Below are positions 7,816-30,927 of a stretch of DNA of 64,000 nt, piece by piece. The notes under the pieces are model-generated. The model did no database searches. It saw only the letters and a list, made by a program, of their open reading frames with translations, and was not told the DNA's origin. Location of the stretch: positions 992,501 through 1,056,500 of the forward strand of contig NZ_SRSF01000001.1 of the NCBI RefSeq assembly GCF_004803465.1, written 5' to 3'. Each line of letters begins with the position of its first letter. Positions within the stretch are counted from its first letter, which is position 1. The stretch is from Neolewinella litorea. Lineage in GTDB: Bacteria > Bacteroidota > Bacteroidia > Chitinophagales > Saprospiraceae. The translations under genes were made by a program, and so were the position numbers.

Positions 7816-9609
7816 ATGCAGCTCACTTCACTCGATTGGATCATTGTCTTCATCTTTTTTGCCGTGACCCTGGCCATCGGCCTGTGGGCCAGTCGGGGTT
7901 CCGGCAAGTCGACCCAGGACTTCTTCCTGTCGGGCCGCAACATGCCCTGGTGGCTGCTCGGCGTCTCCATGGTTGCCACCACCTTTTCGGCCGATACGCC
8001 CAACCTGGTGACCGACATCGTGCGCAAGCAGGGTGTGGCCGGCAACTGGGCCTGGTGGGCCTTCCTGCTTACCGGTATGCTTACGGTGTTCGTATACGCC
8101 CGACTGTGGCGGCGCTCCGGCGTGATGACCGACCTGGAATTTTACGAACTGCGCTACGCCGGCGGTCCGGCCCGATTCCTGCGGCAGTTCCGGGCGATCT
8201 ACCTGGGCGTCTTCTTCAACGTCATGATCATGGCCACCGTCTGCCTGGCGGGCATCAAGATCGCGGGCGTGCTGCTGGATATCGACCCCATCACCACCGT
8301 CGTGCTAGTCTCCGTCGTTACGGTATTGTATTCCGCCCTGGGTGGCCTTAAAGGGGTGATCCTTACCGACTTCGTGCAATTCACCTTCGCGATGGCGGGG
8401 GCCATCTGGGCCGCCTACTATGTGATCAACCTTCCGGTCATCGGCGGACTGGAGGGGCTGCTCTCCCACCCGGAAGTCACTGAAAAATTGGATTTGGTGC
8501 CGGACTTCGACAACCCTGAGGTGTATGTCCCCCTGTTCGTCGTGCCGATCGCGGTGCAGTGGTGGAGCGTCTGGTACCCGGGCGCGGAGCCCGGCGGGGG
8601 CGGCTACGTGGCCCAGCGCATGCTCGCGGCCAAGAACGAAAACCATGCCGTCGGTGCTACCCTGCTGTTCAATGCCTTTCACTACGCCCTGCGGCCCTGG
8701 CCCTGGATCCTAATCGCCCTGGCCTCCATCGTGGTGTTTCCCGACCTGGACAGTATCGCCGCGGCTTTCCCCAACGTGGCCGCGAACGTGATTAACGACG
8801 ACCTGGCCTACCCCGCCATGCTCAGCTTTTTGCCCGCTGGATTGCTCGGACTCGTCATCGCATCGCTCATCGCGGCTGTGATGTCCACCCTTTCCACCCA
8901 CCTCAACTGGGGATCGAGCTACGTGGTCCACGACTGGTACCACCGCTTCATCGACCCCGACGCCAGCGAAGATCGCCTGGTACTCATCGGCCGCATCAGC
9001 ACGGTCCTGCTCATGGTTATGGCGGCCGTGCTGGCCCTGGCCCTATCCAATGCGCTACAGGCCTTCGCGATTCTCCTGCAAATCGGTGCCGGAACCGGCC
9101 TGATCTTCATTCTCCGGTGGTTTTGGTGGCGCATCAACGCCTACACCGAGATCGCGGGCATGTTTATCTCTTTCGTGGTGGCCCTTTTTCTGGAGTTTGC
9201 CTGGCTCCCGCTGGGGCTGCCCGAACTGGCCGGCTACGCCAAACTGCTGCTCGGCATCGGCATCACTACCGTGGGCTGGCTGACGGTGACCTTCGCCACC
9301 CGTCCTACCGACATGAAAACGCTGCAGAACTTCTATACCACTACCCGACCCGGCGGACCGGGCTGGGATCCCGTGGTCGCTACGCTGCCCGCACACGCCG
9401 ACACCAGTGCCGACGGACAGCTTCCGCTGCGCATACTGGCCATGCTCGTCGGGGCGGTCACCATCTATTCCATTCTTTTCGCTACCGGCTTCTTCTTGTA
9501 CAACAACCTCAGCGCCACGCTGATAGCCGGACTTATTGCCGCGGCCGGCATCGTGGCCCTGCTGTTCATATGGAGCAAGTTGAATAAGCCAAAGCCGCGG
9601 ATCGTTTAG
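7816..9609 (+). CDS. Sodium:solute symporter family (SSS) transporter
   Basis: A 597-residue integral inner-membrane protein with about 14 hydrophobic segments. The N-terminus (LTSLDWIIVFIFFAVTLAIGLWASRGSGKSTQDFFLSGRNMPWWLLGVSMVATTFSADTP) has the SSS signature: a first helix, then FFLSGRNMPWW, then the Na+-site helix. Substrates in this family range from sugars and amino acids to nucleosides; the sequence alone does not say which. It diverges from the carboxypeptidase gene with 171 bases between. Upstream are a TTTG at 7761 and TACCTTG at 7787, spaced like a Bacteroidota promoter but imperfect. The next gene starts 63 bases downstream on the same strand. Confidence 0.9.
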   Translation: MQLTSLDWIIVFIFFAVTLAIGLWASRGSGKSTQDFFLSGRNMPWWLLGVSMVATTFSADTPNLVTDIVRKQGVAGNWAWWAFLLTGMLTVFVYARLWRRSGVMTDLEFYELRYAGGPARFLRQFRAIYLGVFFNVMIMATVCLAGIKIAGVLLDIDPITTVVLVSVVTVLYSALGGLKGVILTDFVQFTFAMAGAIWAAYYVINLPVIGGLEGLLSHPEVTEKLDLVPDFDNPEVYVPLFVVPIAVQWWSVWYPGAEPGGGGYVAQRMLAAKNENHAVGATLLFNAFHYALRPWPWILIALASIVVFPDLDSIAAAFPNVAANVINDDLAYPAMLSFLPAGLLGLVIASLIAAVMSTLSTHLNWGSSYVVHDWYHRFIDPDASEDRLVLIGRISTVLLMVMAAVLALALSNALQAFAILLQIGAGTGLIFILRWFWWRINAYTEIAGMFISFVVALFLEFAWLPLGLPELAGYAKLLLGIGITTVGWLTVTFATRPTDMKTLQNFYTTTRPGGPGWDPVVATLPAHADTSADGQLPLRILAMLVGAVTIYSILFATGFFLYNNLSATLIAGLIAAAGIVALLFIWSKLNKPKPRIV

Positions 9610-9672
9610 GTCGGCCTACCGGCGCAACCGTTTTTGGTGTGATCGCGTTTCCTGACTTCCTCATTAACCGGT

Positions 9673-10467
9673 ATGTCAGATATAGCCACCATCGAACGGG
9701 CCATTGCCCCCCTTCACCACCGCCTCACCACCCACCGCATATACGACCTCCTGCGCGACGTCGATGACATCCGCATTTTCATGGAGCAGCACGTTTACGC
9801 GGTGTGGGATTTCATGTCCCTGCTCAAGGCCCTGCAGAACGAATTGACCTGCACCACCCTACCGTGGAAGCCGAGCCCCAACCCCCGCACCGCCCGCTTC
9901 ATCAATGAGATCGTACTGGGAGAAGAAACCGACGTCGACCGCCACGGCGTACCCGTCAGTCACTACGAACTCTACCTCGAAGCCATGGAAGAAATCGGTG
10001 CCGATACCTCCCCCATCCGCGGGTTGCTGTCGCGCATCGACAGCCTCGCGAGCGCCCGTACCGTCTTGCGGGAGGCTGGCCTGGGCAAGGGCGTGACCAG
10101 CTTTGTAGACTACACCTTCGAACTCATTGCCGGCGGTGAGGCCCACCAGATCGCCGCGGCCTTCACCTTCGGGCGGGAAAGCATTATCCCCGAACTCTTC
10201 ATCGAAATCCTCAATGGATCGCCGGAAGATAAAAGCCGGTTTCCGCGATTGGTGTACTACCTCGAGCGCCACATTGAGGTGGACGGCGACGAGCACGGCC
10301 CCCTCTCGGAAGCCATGGTCGCCGAACTCTGCGGACAGGACGTCACCAAGTGGGCCGAGGCGCAGTCGGTAGCCCAGGAAGCCCTGCGCCGGCGTATCGG
10401 CCTGTGGGATGCCATTGCGGAGTCGCTAGAGGCGGCTACTGCTGCCGAACAGCCGGTGGCGGGCTAG
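9673..10467 (+). CDS. DUF3050 domain protein (heme-oxygenase-like helical fold)
   Basis: A 264-residue, probably soluble helical protein. The beginning (IAPLHHRLTTHRIYDLLRDVDDIRIFMEQHVYAVWDFMSLLKALQ) and the block CTTLPWKPSPNPRTARFINEIVLGEE are the DUF3050 signature. The family is predicted to resemble heme oxygenase/TenA-type helical bundles, and the conserved histidines and glutamates (HHR, EQHVY, Asp/Glu-rich VLGEETDVD, DEHG) could bind a metal. The function is not known and I assign none. It may follow the symporter in one transcript. Its last 32 bases overlap the end of the trehalase gene on the opposite strand, although the C-terminal 20 residues are low-complexity and may tolerate this. 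Confidence 0.8.
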   Translation: MSDIATIERAIAPLHHRLTTHRIYDLLRDVDDIRIFMEQHVYAVWDFMSLLKALQNELTCTTLPWKPSPNPRTARFINEIVLGEETDVDRHGVPVSHYELYLEAMEEIGADTSPIRGLLSRIDSLASARTVLREAGLGKGVTSFVDYTFELIAGGEAHQIAAAFTFGRESIIPELFIEILNGSPEDKSRFPRLVYYLERHIEVDGDEHGPLSEAMVAELCGQDVTKWAEAQSVAQEALRRRIGLWDAIAESLEAATAAEQPVAG

Positions 10468-23662: not shown

Positions 23663-24721
23663 ATGGACCGTAAACAACACGAACTCCGCAACCTGCTGCC
23701 CCGCGAGGTACTCCAGGCCCGTCTCGACGCCGAAACGGAGCCCCGGATCACCCTGTCGTTCTACCGCTATGCCCGTATCGACGACCCGCAGGCCTTTCGC
23801 GACGACTGCTACGCGCGCTGGGAACCCCTCGGGGTACTGGGGCGCATCTACGTAGCCACCGAGGGCATGAACGGGCAGCTTTCCGTCCCTTCATCTCATC
23901 TCGATGCCTTCCGCGAAGCACTGTACAGCGTGCCCTTCCTGGAAGGGACCCGGCTCAACATCGCCATCGAAGCCGAGGCACGCTCCTTCCTGAAATTGAT
24001 CATCAAGGTGCGCCCTAAGATCGTGGCCGACGGGCTCGACGACAAGACCTTTGACGTGACCAAGCGCGGTCGCCACCTCAACGCCCGTGAGGTAAACGAA
24101 CTACTCGACCGGGAAGACACCATCGTGGTCGACATGCGCAACCACTACGAAAGCGAGGTGGGCTACTTCGAGGGGGCCATCCGTCCGGCGGTAACCAATT
24201 TTCGCGACATCCTGCCGGTGGTGGAGGACCTGCTGGAAGACCAGAAGGACAAGGAAATCGTGATGTACTGCACCGGGGGAATCCGCTGCGAGAAGGCCAG
24301 CGCCTACTACCTGCACCGGGGCTTCGAGCGGGTGAGTATGGTCGACGGCGGCATCATCGAATACGCCCGGCAGTGCGAGGCCCAGGGGCTGGAAAAGAAG
24401 TACATCGGCAAGAACTTCGTTTTCGACGAGCGGCTCGGCGAGCGGATTACCGAGGACATCGTTAGCCGCTGCCACCAGTGCGGCCGGCCGAGCGACCGCC
24501 AACTCGATTGCGCCAATACCGCCTGCCACATCCTCTTCATCCAGTGCGAAGACTGTGCCGCGGACTATGCGGACTGCTGCTCGGAGGAGTGCCGCGATTT
24601 CAATCGGCTGCCGGAGGAAGAGCGTGCCCGACTGGCGCCGGGTCGTACCTTCAACGGACAGCGATACGGCAAGGCAATGCCGCCCCGCAGCGAACCGGAG
24701 GGCGGCGCCGGCATTCACTAG
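23663..24721 (+). CDS. trhO: tRNA uridine(34) hydroxylase, rhodanese family
   Basis: Hydroxylates U34 of tRNA at C5, the first step of 5-oxyacetyl-uridine formation in some bacteria. The 352 residues (start ATG 23663; an upstream TTG lies within the -7 element) hold an N-terminal ferredoxin-like domain (YRYARIDDPQAFRDDCYARW, GRIYVATEGMNGQLS), a rhodanese domain with active loop CTGGIRCEKA (Cys203), and a C-terminal zinc-like Cys cluster (CHQCGRPSDRQLDC, CHILFIQCEDC, CCSEEC). All are TrhO/YceA hallmarks. The next gene starts 2 bases later, so they are cotranscribed. Confidence 0.94.
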   Translation: MDRKQHELRNLLPREVLQARLDAETEPRITLSFYRYARIDDPQAFRDDCYARWEPLGVLGRIYVATEGMNGQLSVPSSHLDAFREALYSVPFLEGTRLNIAIEAEARSFLKLIIKVRPKIVADGLDDKTFDVTKRGRHLNAREVNELLDREDTIVVDMRNHYESEVGYFEGAIRPAVTNFRDILPVVEDLLEDQKDKEIVMYCTGGIRCEKASAYYLHRGFERVSMVDGGIIEYARQCEAQGLEKKYIGKNFVFDERLGERITEDIVSRCHQCGRPSDRQLDCANTACHILFIQCEDCAADYADCCSEECRDFNRLPEEERARLAPGRTFNGQRYGKAMPPRSEPEGGAGIH

Positions 24722-24723
24722 AT

Positions 24724-25602
24724 ATGACGCTTAAGATTTCCCTGCGGTCAGTGGCCGCGACTGCTATCCTGCTTTTCCTGTTCTCGTCCTGCGTACCCTT
24801 TTCCGGTGGGCGGGGCTCCGGTCCCGAAGACAATCCCCTGCGGGTCATGTCGTACAACGTCCGCTACGACTCCCCCGACGACGGCCGCAACCGCTGGGAG
24901 AACCGCCGTGACCTGCTGGTGAGTCAGGTGCTTTTCCACCACCCCCACGTCATCGGCACCCAGGAAGTACTTCCCAATCAGCTGGGCTATCTGCGCCGGC
25001 AGCTGGACGATTACGACTACGTCGGTGAGGGCAGGGACGGAGGTGATGAGGGGGAGTATTCCGCCCTCTTTTACGACAAGCGCAAGCTTCGGCTGGAAGA
25101 CAGTGGAACTTTCTGGCTATCCCCCACGTCCGGACGGGTCTCCACCGGCTGGGATGCCGCCCTGCCCCGCGTCGTGACCTGGGCCCGACTGCGGAGGCTG
25201 GATACCCGCGAGTCATTCATAGCCTTTAACACCCACTTCGACCACCGCGGCGAACAGGCGCGCCTGGAAAGCGCCAAGTTGCTGGTCAACATGATCAGTC
25301 AGCTCAACCGCGACCGCCTCCCCGTGGTGGTGACCGGCGACCTCAACCTGACCCCGGACACCGAGGCCATTGGAATCCTCACCGGCTATCTGAGGGATGC
25401 CTACGCGGTCTCCCCCGTTCGCCTGGGGCCCGAGGGAACCTTTACCGGCTTCGACTACGACGCCCCGGCGGAGCGGCGCATCGACTACATCATGGTCTCA
25501 CCGGGCGTTGAGGTCCTGCGGTTTGCCACCCTCACCGACGCCGTCAACCGGCGCTTCCCCTCCGATCACTTCCCGGTGGTGGCCGAGGTCGTGCTGCCCT
25601 GA
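24724..25602 (+). CDS. Endonuclease/exonuclease/phosphatase family lipoprotein
   Basis: A 292-residue exported hydrolase of the EEP fold. The start ATG at 24724 gives a lipoprotein signal MTLKISLRSVAATAILLFLFSSC with the lipid-bearing cysteine at 23. The EEP motifs are all present: LRVMSYNVRYDSPDD, the metal Glu in IGTQEVLPNQ, FNTHFDHRG, VTGDLNLTPDT, and the C-terminal RIDYIMVSP and SDHFPVVAEV. Substrates for this group are phosphodiesters such as nucleic acids or inositol/sphingolipid phosphates; I cannot tell which. It is translationally linked to trhO (2-base gap). Its last 37 bases overlap the convergent eboF gene. Confidence 0.9.
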   Translation: MTLKISLRSVAATAILLFLFSSCVPFSGGRGSGPEDNPLRVMSYNVRYDSPDDGRNRWENRRDLLVSQVLFHHPHVIGTQEVLPNQLGYLRRQLDDYDYVGEGRDGGDEGEYSALFYDKRKLRLEDSGTFWLSPTSGRVSTGWDAALPRVVTWARLRRLDTRESFIAFNTHFDHRGEQARLESAKLLVNMISQLNRDRLPVVVTGDLNLTPDTEAIGILTGYLRDAYAVSPVRLGPEGTFTGFDYDAPAERRIDYIMVSPGVEVLRFATLTDAVNRRFPSDHFPVVAEVVLP

Positions 25603-26963
25603 CCGAAGATACCTTTCAGTAGGTAATTGAAGACTTCCGGCGCGTTTAGCTTTTCCGGCTTTTCCTGCCGGCTGATAAATACAGGCAGGTCGCCGTCCGG
25701 CGCGCCCAGCCGGCCGTGGGATCCCTTCACCAGTTCCGGGCGCAGCGGCACTACGTCCATCAGCGTCCGGAAGCCCAGTTTTTTGCCTACCACCTTTAGT
25801 CCGATGCGGGGGATCATGAGCTTCTTGTCGGGATCGAGGAACATCTCGACTGGGTCATACCCAGGCTTCTTGTGGATATCGACGGTGCGTGCGTAATCGG
25901 GTGCCCGCGCATCGTCCAGCCAGTAGTAGTAGCTGAACCAGCTGCGGTCGTCGGCCACCGCTACCAGTTCCCCGGCCCGCTCGTGGTCGATTTTGTATTC
26001 CCGCTTCCCGTGCTCGTCCAGCAGCAATTCGATGCCGGGTTCGTCCTTGAGCAGGTCGCGGACGAGGGGGATGTCGGCCGGGTCCTGGATGTAAATGTGG
26101 GCGATCTGGTGGTCGCAGAGGGCGACGGCGCGGCAGGTGCCGACGTCAAGCAGCTCGGTCCCGCGTTCTTCCCGCACGCTGATCAGACCGGCCTCCCGCA
26201 GCCGCCGGTTGATGGGTACCGGCCGGTCGACGTTGGTGATGCCGTATTCGGAGAGCACGCAGACCTCCACGCCGTTGGCTTCGTAGTAGTTGATCAGCTT
26301 TTCCACCACGCCGTCGATTTCCCGCAGGTCCTGCCGCACCGAGGGGTGGTCGGTGCCGTGCCGCTGGAGGTTGTAGTCGAGGTGGGGCAGGTAGACCAGG
26401 TTCATCGTGGGCCGGTGCCACTCGTGCACCAGGCGGGCGGCGTCGGCGATCCACTGGCTGCTGACGATGTTGGTCCGGGGGCCCCAAAACGAGAACAGCG
26501 GGAAGGTACCCAGCTCCTGCGTCAGGCGGTGCCGCAATTCCATGGGGAAGGTGTAGCAGTCGGGCATCTTGCGACCGTCGGCGAGGTACTGGGGGCGCGG
26601 CGTCACGGTGTAGTCGACCGAAGCGTACATGGCGTACCACCAGCAGATATTGGCTACCGTGAAATTGGGATCGCGCTCGCGGGCTACCTCCCAGATCTTG
26701 GGCGACTGCACCAGGTGATTCGACTGTCTCCACAGCTTCAGTTCCATTTCGTCGCGAAACAACCAGCCGTTAGCCACGATCCCGTGGTCTCGGGGATATT
26801 TGCCAGTGAGGTAGCTCGTTTGCGCGGTCGTGGTCACCGCGGGCAGGGCGGGCCGCACGGTGGTGATTCGGCGGTTGGCCGACCACCGCGACAGAAAGGG
26901 GGTATCCGGACCGATTAGGTTAGCGGTGAGTCCTACGATGTTGAGGATGGCAGTGGGGCGCAT
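25566..26963 (-). CDS. eboF: EboF-like alkaline-phosphatase-superfamily protein
   Basis: The 465-residue last gene of the ebo cluster, of the type I phosphodiesterase/nucleotide pyrophosphatase branch. The nucleophile region is PALPAVTTTAQTSYLTGKYPRDHGIVANGW (candidates Thr44-46), and later blocks are VYLPHLDYNLQRHG, CVLSEYGITNVDRPVPINRRLREAGL and VALCDHQIAHIYIQDP. Compared with ordinary nucleotide pyrophosphatases the first metal Asp is absent (NIVGLTANLIG instead of xxDGL) and SDHG is replaced by SEYG. There is no signal peptide, so it should be cytosolic. It starts 6 bases after eboE. The 3' end overlaps the convergent EEP lipoprotein gene by 37 bases. Confidence 0.85.
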   Translation of the reverse strand: MRPTAILNIVGLTANLIGPDTPFLSRWSANRRITTVRPALPAVTTTAQTSYLTGKYPRDHGIVANGWLFRDEMELKLWRQSNHLVQSPKIWEVARERDPNFTVANICWWYAMYASVDYTVTPRPQYLADGRKMPDCYTFPMELRHRLTQELGTFPLFSFWGPRTNIVSSQWIADAARLVHEWHRPTMNLVYLPHLDYNLQRHGTDHPSVRQDLREIDGVVEKLINYYEANGVEVCVLSEYGITNVDRPVPINRRLREAGLISVREERGTELLDVGTCRAVALCDHQIAHIYIQDPADIPLVRDLLKDEPGIELLLDEHGKREYKIDHERAGELVAVADDRSWFSYYYWLDDARAPDYARTVDIHKKPGYDPVEMFLDPDKKLMIPRIGLKVVGKKLGFRTLMDVVPLRPELVKGSHGRLGAPDGDLPVFISRQEKPEKLNAPEVFNYLLKGIFGQGSTTSATTGK

Positions 26964-26969
26964 GGTCGG

Positions 26970-28133
26970 TTAGTCTTGAAGTTGGCGGCGTACCCAGTCG
27001 AGTTCGCGGTGAATGGAATCGGTGAGCCCAAGCCGCTGGTGATCGGGCAGCACGTCCCAGGTGTAGGTTTCCACCTCCAGGTGGTTGGTGAAGGGCTCGG
27101 CCTGCCACAGCCGCAGCGTCTCCCGGATGGTGTCGTTGGTAGAGTGCAGCAGTCCGTAACTGTTGGCGTAGATGGGCACATGGAAGTGCGTCCGCAGGCT
27201 GCGGTAAGCCGGGTCATCCAGCACGTCCAGGGCCGGTGCCAGATCGGGGAAGCGGTCGATGCGGCCGTCGTCCCGCAGCAGGGCCGCCTGGTGCAGGTAG
27301 ACGGGTTCGTCGTAGGGCCGCAGGCTTGCGCGGACTGATTCGCGGTCGCCCGTCAGGTCGGCCCGCAGGGCGGCGCTGATCTGCAATCGCCCGATCCGTA
27401 CGCCCTCATCGAGCAAGGCGTGCAGGGCTTCGGCCGGCTCCTCAAAGGCTACCGCGAAGTGACAGACGTCGTAGCAAATGGCTAGGTGCCGACGGACGTC
27501 CGCCTCCCGGCCGCCCCGGGCCAGGCGGCGGTAGAAATCAAGAAATTCCCCGCTGTTCTCGAGCAGACCGTCGGGCTCCGGTTCCACGTCGAGGTGCAGG
27601 TCGAGCCCCGTGCGCTGGCGTATGGCGGCGAGGTGGTCGATCACCTCCAGGATATGTTGCTCCATCCGTTCGTAGCCGGGCACCCGCGCGCCGCCGCCCA
27701 CCGGTGCGTGCCAGGGTTTGTAGGAGAGCGGTGAAGTTGAAACGCCGCCGTCCATCCCTTCCGGGAGCAGGGCAGCCAGGATGTCGAACAGGAGTTTGGT
27801 GTAGACCAAGCGCTCGCGGGTCGACCAGTCGGGAGCGTGCACCTCGTCCTTAACCCGCTCCCCGTGGAAGCCGCCGTAGGGGAATCCGTTCATGGTAAAA
27901 ACGTAGCAGTCGTGCTCATCGAGCCACCGCCGGAAGGCCTTGAGGTTGCGGGGTTCGGCCAGTTCGCTCGCCGCGCGTCCCGACAGCCGCAGCCCGATAC
28001 CGAAGGGTTGGTCCGGGCAGGATTTACGCTTTACTTCCAGCACGTGGCGCAGGCTGTGCCGCACCTCCGCCCAGCTTTCGCCGGGGTGAATGTTCGTACA
28101 GTAGGTCAGGTGATGGTCGGGTGCAATCTTCAT
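26970..28133 (-). CDS. eboE: Metabolite traffic protein EboE (xylose-isomerase-like TIM barrel)
   Basis: A 387-residue TIM-barrel protein of the sugar isomerase type. The family start is clear: MKIAPDHHLTYCTNIHPGESWAEV, then FGIGLRLSGRAASELAEP, VFTMNGFPYGGFHGERVKDEVHAPDW and GGVSTSPLSYKPW. The ATG at 28133 is chosen because these are the first conserved residues and because the bases upstream hold the 17-bp dispersed motif and a TTTTG tract. Possible metal ligands are in DLHLDVEPEPDG and CYDVCHFAV. In cyanobacteria ebo genes are needed to move scytonemin precursors to the periplasm; the substrate here is unknown. Confidence 0.9.
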   Translation of the reverse strand: MKIAPDHHLTYCTNIHPGESWAEVRHSLRHVLEVKRKSCPDQPFGIGLRLSGRAASELAEPRNLKAFRRWLDEHDCYVFTMNGFPYGGFHGERVKDEVHAPDWSTRERLVYTKLLFDILAALLPEGMDGGVSTSPLSYKPWHAPVGGGARVPGYERMEQHILEVIDHLAAIRQRTGLDLHLDVEPEPDGLLENSGEFLDFYRRLARGGREADVRRHLAICYDVCHFAVAFEEPAEALHALLDEGVRIGRLQISAALRADLTGDRESVRASLRPYDEPVYLHQAALLRDDGRIDRFPDLAPALDVLDDPAYRSLRTHFHVPIYANSYGLLHSTNDTIRETLRLWQAEPFTNHLEVETYTWDVLPDHQRLGLTDSIHRELDWVRRQLQD

Positions 28134-28135
28134 AG

Positions 28136-28152
28136 GGCGCGGACGCGGGTGC
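28136..28152 (-). repeat. Dispersed 17-bp motif, copy 1 (exact)
   Basis: GGCGCGGACGCGGGTGC on the plus strand; on the sense strand of eboE it reads GCACCCGCGTCCGCGCC and ends 2 bases before the ATG, immediately after CTTTTG. Exact copies occur at 48620 and, inverted, at 62125; one-mismatch copies at 35023 and 63774. Confidence 0.7.
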
Positions 28153-28188
28153 AAAAGTGGGTAGGGTGAACCGCCGGGAGGGGTGGTT

Positions 28189-29064
28189 TCAGGTCACGGC
28201 AAAGTAGCGCGCCAGACCGTAAGACACGGGTAGCAGGGCCAGCACGACCAGTCCGGCGGGCAAGCCCATGAATCCCGCGGCCAGACAGGCATTGAGGGGA
28301 ATGAGGGAAATCACGCCGGTCTTGACGGCATTCTTAATCGTAGGGGGGCGGTTGTCGCGGATGGCCCCCACCTTGGCCCGCAGGTTCATGCCGTACCAGA
28401 GCAGCAGGAACGGCAGAGCGGGCCAGAATTCGAAGACCGTCCAACGGCTGAGCAGCAGCAGGGCCACGGCCACGGCGGTATCGAGTCCCAAGGCCAGTTG
28501 AATGGAAGAGCGGTTCTGGCCGCCAACCTCGCCGCGGCTGGTCAGGGTGATCGCCCCGATGAAGACCACCGGCAGGAAGCTCAGCCACCAGAAGATGTCG
28601 AGCGCCGCGGCACTCAGACTGATACCAAGGAGCAAGTTGCCGCCCCGGCACATCCCCATGACGAGCGGACCAAAGAAGGCCTGGTGCTTGGCCCAACCGT
28701 TGTAGAGCAGCGTCAGCAAGGCTACGGCCAGGGCTATGGCGGCACTCGAGGTACCGGCGAATGCGGCAACCCCTACTCCACCGAGGAGGAGCAGTCCGCC
28801 CAAAAGGATAGCGGACGTCAGGGATACCTTGCCGCTGGGCAGGGCGCGTTCCGGTCGCTCTACGCGGTCGAGGTCCAGGTCAAATACGTCGTTGAAAACA
28901 ACGCCCCCGCCGTACAGCCCGAGGGTCGACACACAGAGCCAGCCCAGGGCTTCGCTCCAGCTGCCTTCGAGGGCAGCGGCTACGCTCGCGCCGGCTAGGA
29001 TGTCGGCCACGGCGGTGACCAGGTTGGCGGGTCGGAGGAGGGTAAGGTAGGGGCGTAGTGACAC
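28189..29064 (-). CDS. eboC: EboC, UbiA-like prenyltransferase family membrane protein
   Basis: A 291-residue membrane protein with about eight to nine hydrophobic helices. It carries the UbiA-type prenyl-diphosphate motif NDVFDLDLD (NDxxDxxxD, residues 58-66) followed by RVERPERALPSGK. A second Asp-rich motif is not evident, as expected for the Ebo branch. I choose the GTG at 29064 because it follows the eboB stop by 13 bases and is next to the conserved SLRPYLTLLRPANLVTA; an ATG at 29166 would overlap eboB. Its end is 55 bases from eboE, and eboD, normally between eboC and eboE, is missing. Confidence 0.88.
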   Translation of the reverse strand: MSLRPYLTLLRPANLVTAVADILAGASVAAALEGSWSEALGWLCVSTLGLYGGGVVFNDVFDLDLDRVERPERALPSGKVSLTSAILLGGLLLLGGVGVAAFAGTSSAAIALAVALLTLLYNGWAKHQAFFGPLVMGMCRGGNLLLGISLSAAALDIFWWLSFLPVVFIGAITLTSRGEVGGQNRSSIQLALGLDTAVAVALLLLSRWTVFEFWPALPFLLLWYGMNLRAKVGAIRDNRPPTIKNAVKTGVISLIPLNACLAAGFMGLPAGLVVLALLPVSYGLARYFAVT

Positions 29065-29077
29065 GGGCCGGGAGGCT

Positions 29078-29983
29078 TTAATTTTCGATGATGTTGTCTC
29101 CGGCGGAGGTGGTGCGGCGCCCGTTGCGTAGCACGCTGTTGCCACTGAAGAGCTGGCTGCGGTCAATCTCCGGTGCGTCGAGCCAGTCGCTTTCCTTCAT
29201 TTGTCCGCTCTGCGAGTACGCGGTAAGGGCGTTCTGGTAGGTGACCTTGCGGACATCCTCCTCGGAGATGCCGCGCTCCAGCATAAGGGCGGCGGTTTTG
29301 GGTACGGAGAGCGGGTCGCTGATGCCCCAGTCGGCGGAGCTGTCGACGATGATGCGCTCCGGGCCGTAGTGCTTCATAAGGTCAACCATGCGTTCGTTAC
29401 CCATCTTGGTGCCGGGATAGATGGTGAAGGCGGTCCAGTAGCCCCGGTCGAGCACCTCCTGGGCGGTTTCCTCATTGCAGTGGTCGATAATGACCTTGGT
29501 GGGGTCGCAGCCGTGCTCCTCGAGTACATCCATACTCCGGTAGGTCCCGTTCTTTTTGTCGCGGTGCGGCGTGTGGATCAGGATGGGCAGGTCGAGTTCC
29601 TTGGCCAGTTCGATCTGCTGGCGGAAGTACTTGTCTTCGGCCTCAGTCTGGTCGTCGTACCCGATCTCGCCGATGGCGACCACGCCCTCCTTGGTGGCGT
29701 AGAGGGGCAGCAGGTCCATCACCTCCTCGGCCAGGGCTTCGTTGTTGGCTTCCTTGGAGTTCAGGCCGATGGTGCAGTAGTGGCGGATGCCGAACTGGGA
29801 GGAGCGGAAGCGTTCCCAGCCGACGAGGGTGCTGAAGTAGTCGCGGAAGGAGCCCGCGGCGGTGCGGGGCTGTCCGAGCCAGAAGGCGGGTTCGATGAGC
29901 GCGACGATACCGGCCGCGCGCATGGCTTCGTAGTCGTCCGTGGTGCGGGAAACCATATGTACGTGGGGGTCGATAAATTGCAT
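29078..29983 (-). CDS. eboB: EboB, TatD-family metal-dependent hydrolase
   Basis: A 301-residue TIM-barrel hydrolase. Metal ligands follow the TatD order: MQFIDPHVHM (His7, His9), VVAIGEIGYDDQ (Glu), LPILIHTPHRD (His), KVIIDHCNEET (His), and IIVDSSADWG (Asp). The ATG at 29983 is directly before the first metal motif; the frame is open further upstream but without recognisable sequence. EboB proteins differ from DNase TatD by the YDDQTEAEDKYFRQQI region. It sits 92 bases after eboA; that gap contains an A/T tract and TACTTTAC on the minus strand, which could be an internal promoter. Confidence 0.9.
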   Translation of the reverse strand: MQFIDPHVHMVSRTTDDYEAMRAAGIVALIEPAFWLGQPRTAAGSFRDYFSTLVGWERFRSSQFGIRHYCTIGLNSKEANNEALAEEVMDLLPLYATKEGVVAIGEIGYDDQTEAEDKYFRQQIELAKELDLPILIHTPHRDKKNGTYRSMDVLEEHGCDPTKVIIDHCNEETAQEVLDRGYWTAFTIYPGTKMGNERMVDLMKHYGPERIIVDSSADWGISDPLSVPKTAALMLERGISEEDVRKVTYQNALTAYSQSGQMKESDWLDAPEIDRSQLFSGNSVLRNGRRTTSAGDNIIEN

Positions 29984-30075
29984 AGCTGCTGGGTGTTTAG
30001 TGGAAGGGGTATCGGCTCGGAAATTCGGGAACCGGCCCGAAAACCAAAAAAATCTGGTGCGTAAAGTAAGGAGGA

Positions 30076-30927
30076 TCAGGTAGCGCGCCGCTCCTGCCGC
30101 CGGCCGATGGTGTTCCAGGCGGGAAGGTCGGTGGTAGACAACTGCTGCTCCTTTAACCATTCGCGCGCCGGGGGGTACTTGCTATCGGAAAGGGCCCGGG
30201 CGGCGGCGAGCTGTTCGAGTTCATCGCCTTCGAGGAGGGTCTTTTGCAGTGCCGGCAGCGATCGCTCGTTGACGAAGCCGTCTACGAAGCGCCACAGTTC
30301 CGGACTTACCGGCCGGTGGGCCGACCACCGCTCCTCGGCGTAGTCGAGGAAAATATCGGCCAGCCGTTCGTTCTTGCGCTCCTCGATGCGGTAGATGCGG
30401 TACATGGGCCGCTGCATGAACATGGCCTTGAGCACCATCTGGTTCCAGGCGTCTTCCGAGAGGTAGCGGGCGGGATAGGGATTGTCCAGAGCGATGGCAT
30501 CGAATACGCCCACCATATTCGTGCGCAGTCCTTCGCGGGCGCGGCCGGGAAATTCCGCGGCGTTGCTCAGGAAGTACAGTCCGCGGTACAGCGCCATCAG
30601 CTCCCGGTAATCGGCGGTGGTGAATAGTTCGTCCAGAACCGCCCGGTTGTCGGAGGGCGGAAGGGCGCACATCAGCAGGATGCGCCCGAGTTCGTCGGCG
30701 GTCCAGGGGGTAGCGGCGAAGTTGGGATAGATCGCGTTGAACGAACTGTACTCCGCTTCGGTAAACTGCAGTTCTTCCTTACCCAGGAAGCGCGGACAGG
30801 CCCCAAAGGCCAGGTAAAAGCTGCGCGCCTTGAAGTCCGTCTCCAAAGCAGTCAATTTCCCTTCCAGCCACCGCCTTCCCTCGGGCGACAGGTGGCGGAG
30901 CAGGATGTGATGGATGGTACCGTTCAT
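30076..30927 (-). CDS. eboA: EboA domain protein
   Basis: The first gene of the ebo cluster, 283 residues from the ATG at 30927 (MNGTIHHILLRHLSPEGRRWLEGKL). A longer in-frame start at 30972 would include the likely -7 element. The product is helical and soluble, with family segments RSFYLAFGACPRFLGKEELQFT, GLYFLSNAAEFPGRAREGLRTNMVGVFDAIALDNPYPARYLSEDAWNQMVLKAMFM, the last being the most conserved part of EboA. No enzyme motif is known. Homologues occur in cyanobacteria, Bacteroidota, some Pseudomonas and eustigmatophyte plastids, nearly always with the other ebo genes. Confidence 0.88.
   Translation of the reverse strand: MNGTIHHILLRHLSPEGRRWLEGKLTALETDFKARSFYLAFGACPRFLGKEELQFTEAEYSSFNAIYPNFAATPWTADELGRILLMCALPPSDNRAVLDELFTTADYRELMALYRGLYFLSNAAEFPGRAREGLRTNMVGVFDAIALDNPYPARYLSEDAWNQMVLKAMFMQRPMYRIYRIEERKNERLADIFLDYAEERWSAHRPVSPELWRFVDGFVNERSLPALQKTLLEGDELEQLAAARALSDSKYPPAREWLKEQQLSTTDLPAWNTIGRRQERRAT

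What the first reader, a model, noticed from the sequence alone, without database searches (positions are those of the whole stretch)
25566..30927. An ebo cluster that has lost eboD
Five minus-strand genes match eboA, eboB, eboC, eboE and eboF in the canonical order, with short gaps. The sugar-phosphate-cyclase-like gene eboD, normally between eboC and eboE, is absent: only 55 bases separate them. The ebo operon is known from cyanobacteria (scytonemin precursor export), Bacteroidota, Pseudomonas and eustigmatophyte plastids, and its product is unknown in heterotrophs. A five-gene form would mean that the cyclase substrate or product is supplied elsewhere, or that this version does something else.
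Basis: partly seen in the sequence, partly recalled or inferred. Interest (0 to 1): 0.78.

Follow-up and report, generated by a model that had tools for sequence, protein, structure and literature searches.

The report
Ebo operon with swapped cyclitol-making enzyme
A widespread but poorly understood bacterial gene cluster (ebo) lacks its usual sugar-cyclising enzyme here, and the genome instead carries an inositol-making enzyme and a partner that sit inside the same cluster in Streptomyces, so the missing step has probably been replaced rather than lost.

Summary
Observation confirmed: minus-strand eboA, B, C, E, F, 55 bases between eboC and eboE, no eboD remnant, and one AroB-type cyclase in the genome. 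eboD-less ABCEF was already in print (Leeuwenhoekiella; eboD also missing in two Planctomycetes) as possible deletion or draft artefact. New here: the gap tracks a replacement. All 11 eboD-less ABCEF genomes found (10 of the window's genus, 1 Leeuwenhoekiella) carry a divergent myo-inositol-phosphate synthase (MIPS), with a sugar-phosphate isomerase (SPI) in the same cluster in 10 of 11. None of 95 eboD-bearing ebo genomes tested has that MIPS (one has the ordinary kind). The Ebo tree needs three changes, each paired with MIPS. In Streptomyces, Embleya, Nonomuraea and Gemmatirosa the ebo cluster itself holds MIPS and SPI and no eboD; of 48 EboE plasmids 29 have MIPS nearby, 15 EboD, 4 neither, none both. 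Best reading: Ebo has an interchangeable cyclitol-supply step, EboD or MIPS plus SPI; here the latter lies about 650 kb away. Product and chemistry are untested. Against: the same MIPS occurs without EboE in 32 of 32 non-Bacteroidota genomes checked; only three independent contrasts; an EboC homologue in print farnesylates quinolines.

The parts
30076..30927 (-). eboA
   Evidence: EboA domain NF035938 157 bits, cut-off 50; EboA_family NF035937 231, below its cut-off 320
29078..29983 (-). eboB (TatD-like hydrolase)
   Evidence: PF01026 78 bits; 66-99% identical to EboB in Bacteroidota ebo loci
28189..29064 (-). eboC (UbiA-like prenyltransferase; GTG start taken after the end of eboB)
   Evidence: NF035940 equivalog 350 bits, cut-off 250
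28134..28188 (-). 55-base eboC-eboE junction where eboD would lie
   Evidence: sequence; no EboD-like stretch at E<1 with three EboD queries
26970..28133 (-). eboE (TIM barrel)
   Evidence: NF035939 equivalog 466 bits, cut-off 250
25566..26963 (-). eboF (type I phosphodiesterase family)
   Evidence: PF01663 195 bits, cut-off 23

Best explanation
This is a working ebo system whose cyclitol-making enzyme has been replaced. In place of EboD (a sugar phosphate cyclase proposed to act on sedoheptulose 7-phosphate), the cell uses a divergent myo-inositol-1-phosphate synthase (MIPS, glucose 6-phosphate to inositol phosphate, NAD-dependent; reaction recalled) and a xylose-isomerase-like sugar-phosphate isomerase (SPI). 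In the window's genome the two genes are adjacent at C1:368740-370929, about 650 kb from the ebo operon. Shown: absence of eboD; presence and co-distribution of MIPS; MIPS and SPI inside the ebo cluster in Actinomycetota and Gemmatimonadota; no ebo cluster seen with both EboD and MIPS. Inferred: that the MIPS/SPI product feeds the same point as EboD's, that it or something made from it meets the prenyltransferase EboC and the enzymes EboB, E and F, and that the result serves small-molecule export as proposed for Nostoc.
For: (1) MIPS (PF07994) in 10 of 21 genus genomes, exactly the 10 with eboE and no eboD; the one eboE+ eboD+ member and the 10 without eboE lack it, two of the latter being under 90% complete. 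(2) Test: a scan for this MIPS hit a Leeuwenhoekiella MAG; its ebo operon, fetched afterwards, is ABCEF with 61 bases between C and E, and its only cyclase above cut-off is AroB-like. That the genus Leeuwenhoekiella holds an eboD-less operon was already known. (3) Of 70 EboE+ Flavobacteriaceae genomes 66 have eboD and none of these has MIPS; the one ABCEF genome is the one with MIPS (it was the search centre, so known beforehand). (4) Totals: divergent MIPS in 11 of 11 eboD-less ABCEF and 0 of 95 eboD+ genomes. (5) The EboABCEF tree forces three changes, each with MIPS. (6) Six annotated Streptomyces clusters read MIPS-EboC-SPI-EboA-EboB-EboE-EboF; by tblastn so do Nonomuraea, Embleya and Streptomyces NBC_01450, and Gemmatirosa has these genes in another order without a detected EboA. 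(7) Of 48 EboE plasmids 29 have MIPS nearby, 15 EboD, 4 neither, none both. (8) Five MIPS loci of the genus hold only MIPS+SPI, the two genes of the Streptomyces cluster, on two branches of the MIPS tree. (9) The MIPS aligns at residues 30-411 of 436 with solved MIPS 7nwr.
Against: MIPS is not in the operon in Bacteroidota. The same MIPS, usually in a 7-gene YcaO cluster, occurs without EboE in all 32 non-Bacteroidota genomes checked and on a Hymenobacter plasmid without ebo nearby, so it has another use. Only three independent contrasts: sign test p=0.25, which cannot reach 0.05. Neolewinella MIPS is nearer to the proteobacterial cluster MIPS than to the Streptomyces ebo MIPS. The Streptomyces EboC-like proteins are distant: window EboC does not find them in the plasmid search (1 record, Aureibacter) and is about 30% identical. 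One eboD-less genome (G004) has no SPI in 47 kb around its MIPS. Six EboE carriers have neither enzyme nearby: three lone eboE in Flavobacteriaceae, two B-E-F clusters and one lone eboE on Streptomyces plasmids. No shared substitutions in the Ebo proteins of the three eboD-less lineages, apart from one gappy C-terminal EboB column. An EboC homologue farnesylates quinolines in vitro; of the 14 acceptors, all aromatic, six gave product (PMC9235831, passages), so a cyclitol acceptor is unproven.
Confidence: 0.7

Rival explanations
1. The five-gene core ABCEF works without any dedicated cyclitol; eboD is dispensable and the MIPS cluster is an unrelated pathway that happens to share these lineages.
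For: The MIPS cluster stands alone outside Bacteroidota (0 of 32 with EboE); the five ABCEF genes are each essential for scytonemin in Nostoc while eboD was not tested (PMC6282210, passages); an EboC homologue prenylates aromatic quinolines (PMC9235831, passages).
Against: Three of three independent eboD losses carry the divergent MIPS, 0 of 95 retainers do; MIPS and SPI inside the ebo cluster in two other phyla; the MIPS locus holds just MIPS+SPI in this genome.
Confidence: 0.19
2. A sub-case that overlaps with the best explanation: MIPS and SPI do serve ebo, but the system makes a different, inositol-derived (C6) end product rather than the EboD-type one, so it is a second Ebo pathway rather than a stand-in.
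For: MIPS and sugar phosphate cyclases make different ring skeletons (recalled chemistry); Streptomyces EboC-like proteins are only about 30% identical to Neolewinella EboC and carry their own family name, SCO3242.
Against: Neolewinella EboC is an ordinary EboC, 54-56% identical to its nearest eboD+ relatives, and the eboD-less lineages share no EboC substitution.
Confidence: 0.35
3. AroB (3-dehydroquinate synthase) supplies the ring by doubling as EboD.
For: It is the only cyclase of its superfamily found in the genome.
Against: EboD queries score it 115-120 bits, while AroB of three genus members without EboE (G002, G005, G013) score 434-460 against it and group with it.
Confidence: 0.03
4. 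Assembly artefact, or eboD elsewhere in the genome.
Against: eboD is missing at the same place in ten genomes of the genus, several on contigs over 1 Mb, and each has a single PF01761 hit.
Confidence: 0.01

Closest known systems
Six-gene ebo operon (eboABCDEF) of Bacteroidota and Cyanobacteria (PMC5133447, PMC6282210)
   Same: EboA, B, C, E, F and their order
   Different: no eboD; a MIPS-SPI pair at another locus
eboD-less ABCEF of Leeuwenhoekiella sp. MAR_2009_132 (PMC5133447)
   Same: same gene content and order
   Different: reported as a possible deletion or artefact in one draft; here shared by ten genomes of one genus and tied to MIPS. Another Leeuwenhoekiella (MAG HyVt-349) shows the same pairing; MAR_2009_132 itself was not examined
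Streptomyces cluster inositol-3-phosphate synthase / SCO3242 prenyltransferase / SPI / EboA / TatD / EboE / phosphodiesterase (database annotation)
   Same: MIPS, SPI and EboABCEF counterparts, no eboD
   Different: all in one cluster; EboC-like protein of another subfamily
MIPS-YcaO seven-gene cluster of Methylobacterium, Roseomonas, Sphingomonas and Myxococcus
   Same: same MIPS and SPI kin; complete form in four Neolewinella genomes and Leeuwenhoekiella
   Different: no EboE in the 32 non-Bacteroidota genomes checked

Membership tests
ebo core (EboA, B, C, E, F) | EboC equivalog | tested here: met
   350 bits, cut-off 250
ebo core (EboA, B, C, E, F) | EboE equivalog | tested here: met
   466 bits, cut-off 250
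ebo core (EboA, B, C, E, F) | EboA | tested here: met
   domain model 157, cut-off 50; the family model gives 231 and misses its cut-off 320
ebo core (EboA, B, C, E, F) | EboB and EboF of the operon type, in order | tested here: met
   66-99% and 47-92% identity to those of other ebo loci; no curated Ebo model for them appeared
six-gene ebo operon ABCDEF | eboD in the operon or genome | tested here: not met
   no EboD in the window; the only PF01761 protein of the genome is AroB
MIPS/SPI-type ebo system | MIPS and SPI in the same genome | tested here: met
   L129:7741-9051 and 9079-9930
MIPS/SPI-type ebo system | MIPS and SPI inside the ebo cluster, as in Streptomyces | tested here: not met
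   about 650 kb apart on one contig
MIPS/SPI-type ebo system | MIPS product used by Ebo proteins | not testable with these tools
   needs biochemistry or genetics
myo-inositol-1-phosphate synthase | both Pfam domains and alignment with a solved MIPS | tested here: met
   PF07994 196 bits, PF01658 106 bits; 7nwr E 2.4e-76
myo-inositol-1-phosphate synthase | enzyme activity | not testable with these tools
   needs an assay

The most novel reading that the evidence does not exclude
Ebo is a modular pathway that needs a cyclitol, probably for a prenylated compound used in moving small molecules across the membrane, with two unrelated, interchangeable ring-making entry modules (sugar phosphate cyclase EboD, or inositol-phosphate synthase plus isomerase), swapped repeatedly in evolution across at least three phyla, in cis or in trans.
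Probability: 0.36. Interest if true: 0.82.

Novelty: new variant of a known kind. Interest (0 to 1): 0.64.

Why it matters
The Ebo product has been unknown since the operon was described, and EboD's substrate was only inferred from its relatives. An independent enzyme family of known chemistry (MIPS) in EboD's place suggests that a cyclitol is needed, narrows what it can be, and gives genetically separable parts to test. It also turns apparent eboD losses into replacements, and links the ebo operon of Bacteroidota with a Streptomyces cluster; I saw no paper that joins MIPS with ebo in the rows listed by searches.

Tried and rejected
EboD or DHQ synthase paralogue elsewhere: only AroB. The 2.2 kb between eboC and eboE in G004 was a candidate eboD remnant; its ORFs do not look like a cyclase (by eye) and EboD queries find none there. 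In the same call one weak EboD match in another relative (L021:5774-5956, 34% over 68 residues, E 0.014) lies beyond eboF and was taken as chance. A shared mark of changed substrate in the eboD-less lineages: none in EboA, C, E or F, one gappy C-terminal column in EboB. Ebo genes near the MIPS cluster of other phyla: none of EboA, B, C, D, E, F within up to 10 kb in the 80 loci, many of them cut short by contig ends, and no EboE genome-wide in 32 genomes; EboA, B, C and F were not sought genome-wide. MIPS as such is not the marker: the ordinary Bacteroidota MIPS occurs in 6 of 47 genomes without EboE and in 1 of 27 with eboD. Literature: searches list no paper that joins MIPS with ebo (searches listed 20 of 513 and 20 of 204; the main text of PMC5133447 has no word beginning 'inositol').
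Full report
The observation. The five minus-strand ORFs are full length and in order A-B-C-E-F. EboC and EboE pass curated equivalog cut-offs; EboA passes the domain cut-off but not the stricter family cut-off. EboB and EboF have only general Pfam names but match their counterparts in other ebo loci at 66-99% and 47-92% identity. Between eboC and eboE lie 55 bases. Three EboD queries find nothing at E<1 in the window. The genome, about 99% complete, has one PF01761 protein. In a tree of 41 cyclase rows it lies with AroB proteins, and the EboD proteins form their own clade (quick method). The operon is under purifying selection (dN/dS 0.02-0.18 against the nearest relative).

Already in print. 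PMC5133447 (passages) describes ABCEF without eboD in Leeuwenhoekiella sp. MAR_2009_132, 'may be due to a recent deletion', with artefact not excluded, and no eboD in two of three Planctomycetes, also drafts. PMC6282210 (passages) shows that each of the five ABCEF genes is needed for scytonemin in Nostoc punctiforme and leaves eboD untested. PMC6092422 (passages) adds an ABCDEF operon in Phycorickettsia. PMC9235831 (passages) shows that an EboC homologue of Maribacter farnesylates quinolines: six of 14 aromatic acceptors gave product, phenols and catechols none; no word beginning 'cyclitol' occurs in it.

Not an artefact.

What replaces it. From memory of Streptomyces annotations I tested for myo-inositol-phosphate synthase. 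In the genus PF07994 occurs in exactly the 10 eboD-less ebo genomes and in none of the other 11, two of which (G003, G010) are under 90% complete. In 74 further Bacteroidota it occurs in 1 of 27 with eboE and eboD and in 6 of 47 without eboE, always as the ordinary, higher-scoring type (312-358 bits), not the divergent type of the eboD-less genomes (163-191 bits for the main stretch). In the window's genome the MIPS gene is followed directly by an SPI of the xylose-isomerase-like TIM barrel family. Six genomes of the genus hold a longer cluster: MIPS, a protein without a Pfam match, methyltransferase, inositol-dehydrogenase-like oxidoreductase, another protein without a match, YcaO and, in four of the six, SPI. 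Five loci hold only MIPS and SPI within the 16-17 kb read (G020 has one locus of each kind). In one genome, G004, no SPI lies within 47 kb.

A test. Only then was its ebo operon sought, though the genus was known to hold an eboD-less operon. It has EboE, the operon is ABCEF with 61 bases between C and E, and no EboD matches there. Its only cyclase above cut-off is AroB-like, split over two contigs whose ends share 106 identical bases; the MAG is fragmented, so absence is less sure there. In 397 genomes of its family (Flavobacteriaceae, recalled) 70 have EboE: 66 have eboD with it, 3 have a lone eboE within 6 kb either side, 1 (this MAG, the centre of the search) is ABCEF; MIPS occurs in that one alone. 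Three of the 70 repeat genomes of the earlier sample (same contig coordinates), so eboD-bearing genomes number 32 + 66 - 3 = 95, with the divergent MIPS in none and any MIPS in one; eboD-less ABCEF genomes number 11, all with it. Of the 32, six show no EboC by tblastn in the stretch read, and two of these no EboA or EboB either; they were kept in the count.

How often. On a tree of concatenated EboA, B, C, E, F (43 rows, 1668 columns) the eboD-less state needs three changes, forced by well supported branches: the main Neolewinella clade, N. antarctica (whose ebo proteins pair with those of G239, a member of the Leeuwenhoekiella family) and Leeuwenhoekiella. All three independent contrasts go with MIPS, but three cannot be significant by the sign test. 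In the MIPS tree the Neolewinella and Leeuwenhoekiella proteins form one clade among the cluster-type MIPS, and the loci reduced to MIPS+SPI fall on two branches, one with 94% support (quick method).

The same module inside ebo clusters. Six annotated Streptomyces plasmids carry MIPS, SCO3242 (EboC-like), SPI, EboA, TatD (EboB), EboE and EboF-like genes in a row without a DHQ synthase. Records of Nonomuraea, Embleya and Streptomyces NBC_01450, without annotation there, have the same order, and Gemmatirosa (Gemmatimonadota) has SPI, MIPS, EboC, EboF, EboB and EboE together, with no EboA detected. Of 48 EboE-bearing plasmid records 29 have MIPS close by and 15 have EboD close by, none both; four have neither: two B-E-F clusters, one lone eboE, and one EboE fragment at a record end that was not read. 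Twenty of the 48 were fetched and read, the others judged from hit coordinates in capped lists (60 of 136 and 60 of 115 rows, which reach well below the Ebo-type matches); 19 of the 29 are near-copies. Neolewinella and Streptomyces SPI are 46% identical, the two MIPS 34-39%. PMC3610822 (passages) lists SCO3242 and SCO3243 (myo-inositol phosphate synthase) under the CDA cluster; PMC5133447 notes actinobacterial EboA fused to a xylose-isomerase-like domain.

Mechanism. Both EboD kin and MIPS turn a sugar phosphate into a carbocycle with bound NAD (recalled). The simplest reading is that Ebo needs a cyclitol, made by EboD from a C7 sugar phosphate or by MIPS from glucose 6-phosphate and then adjusted by SPI. 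Whether EboC prenylates that ring, or an aromatic partner as the quinoline work would allow, is open. Export of small molecules follows the Nostoc work and is not tested here. Whether the two forms end in one compound is open too.

Weak points. The link in Bacteroidota is by co-occurrence only. The MIPS cluster has a life of its own: 0 of 32 non-Bacteroidota carriers have EboE. Six EboE carriers have neither enzyme nearby. Window EboC does not find the Streptomyces EboC-like proteins in the plasmid search. The eboD-less Ebo proteins show no shared signature beyond one gappy column.

Noticed in passing
L154-L226: A conserved MIPS / unknown / methyltransferase / IolG-like / unknown / YcaO / SPI cluster in Methylobacterium, Roseomonas, Sphingomonas, Myxococcus and others (not complete in every locus), perhaps an undescribed inositol-derived pathway; one paper search found nothing.
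   Followed up: partly
L343, L345, L346: The Streptomyces MIPS-type ebo cluster lies between a ScyD/ScyE family gene and a multicopper oxidase gene, reminiscent of scytonemin assembly outside the cytoplasm.
   Followed up: no
L329, L330, L331; L351: Lone eboE genes without other ebo genes nearby in three Flavobacteriaceae and on one Streptomyces plasmid.
   Followed up: no
L017 against L077: N. antarctica (G019) carries an ebo operon of the flavobacterial type, unlike the rest of its genus, which points to horizontal transfer; its MIPS is of the genus type.
   Followed up: partly
L108 (G013:C14:627405-627722): A second, very divergent PF01761 protein (68 bits) in a genus member without EboE or MIPS.
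   Followed up: no
L085 (G236): eboE matches in two overlapping pieces, so it may be frameshifted there; left as it is.
   Followed up: no
window 25566-25602: The 3' end of eboF overlaps by 37 bases the convergent ORF 24478-25602, which looks like an endonuclease/exonuclease/phosphatase family protein (by eye, no search).
   Followed up: no
L338: A Hymenobacter volaticus plasmid holds the MIPS-YcaO cluster (no methyltransferase listed, oxidoreductase in two pieces) without ebo nearby.
   Followed up: no
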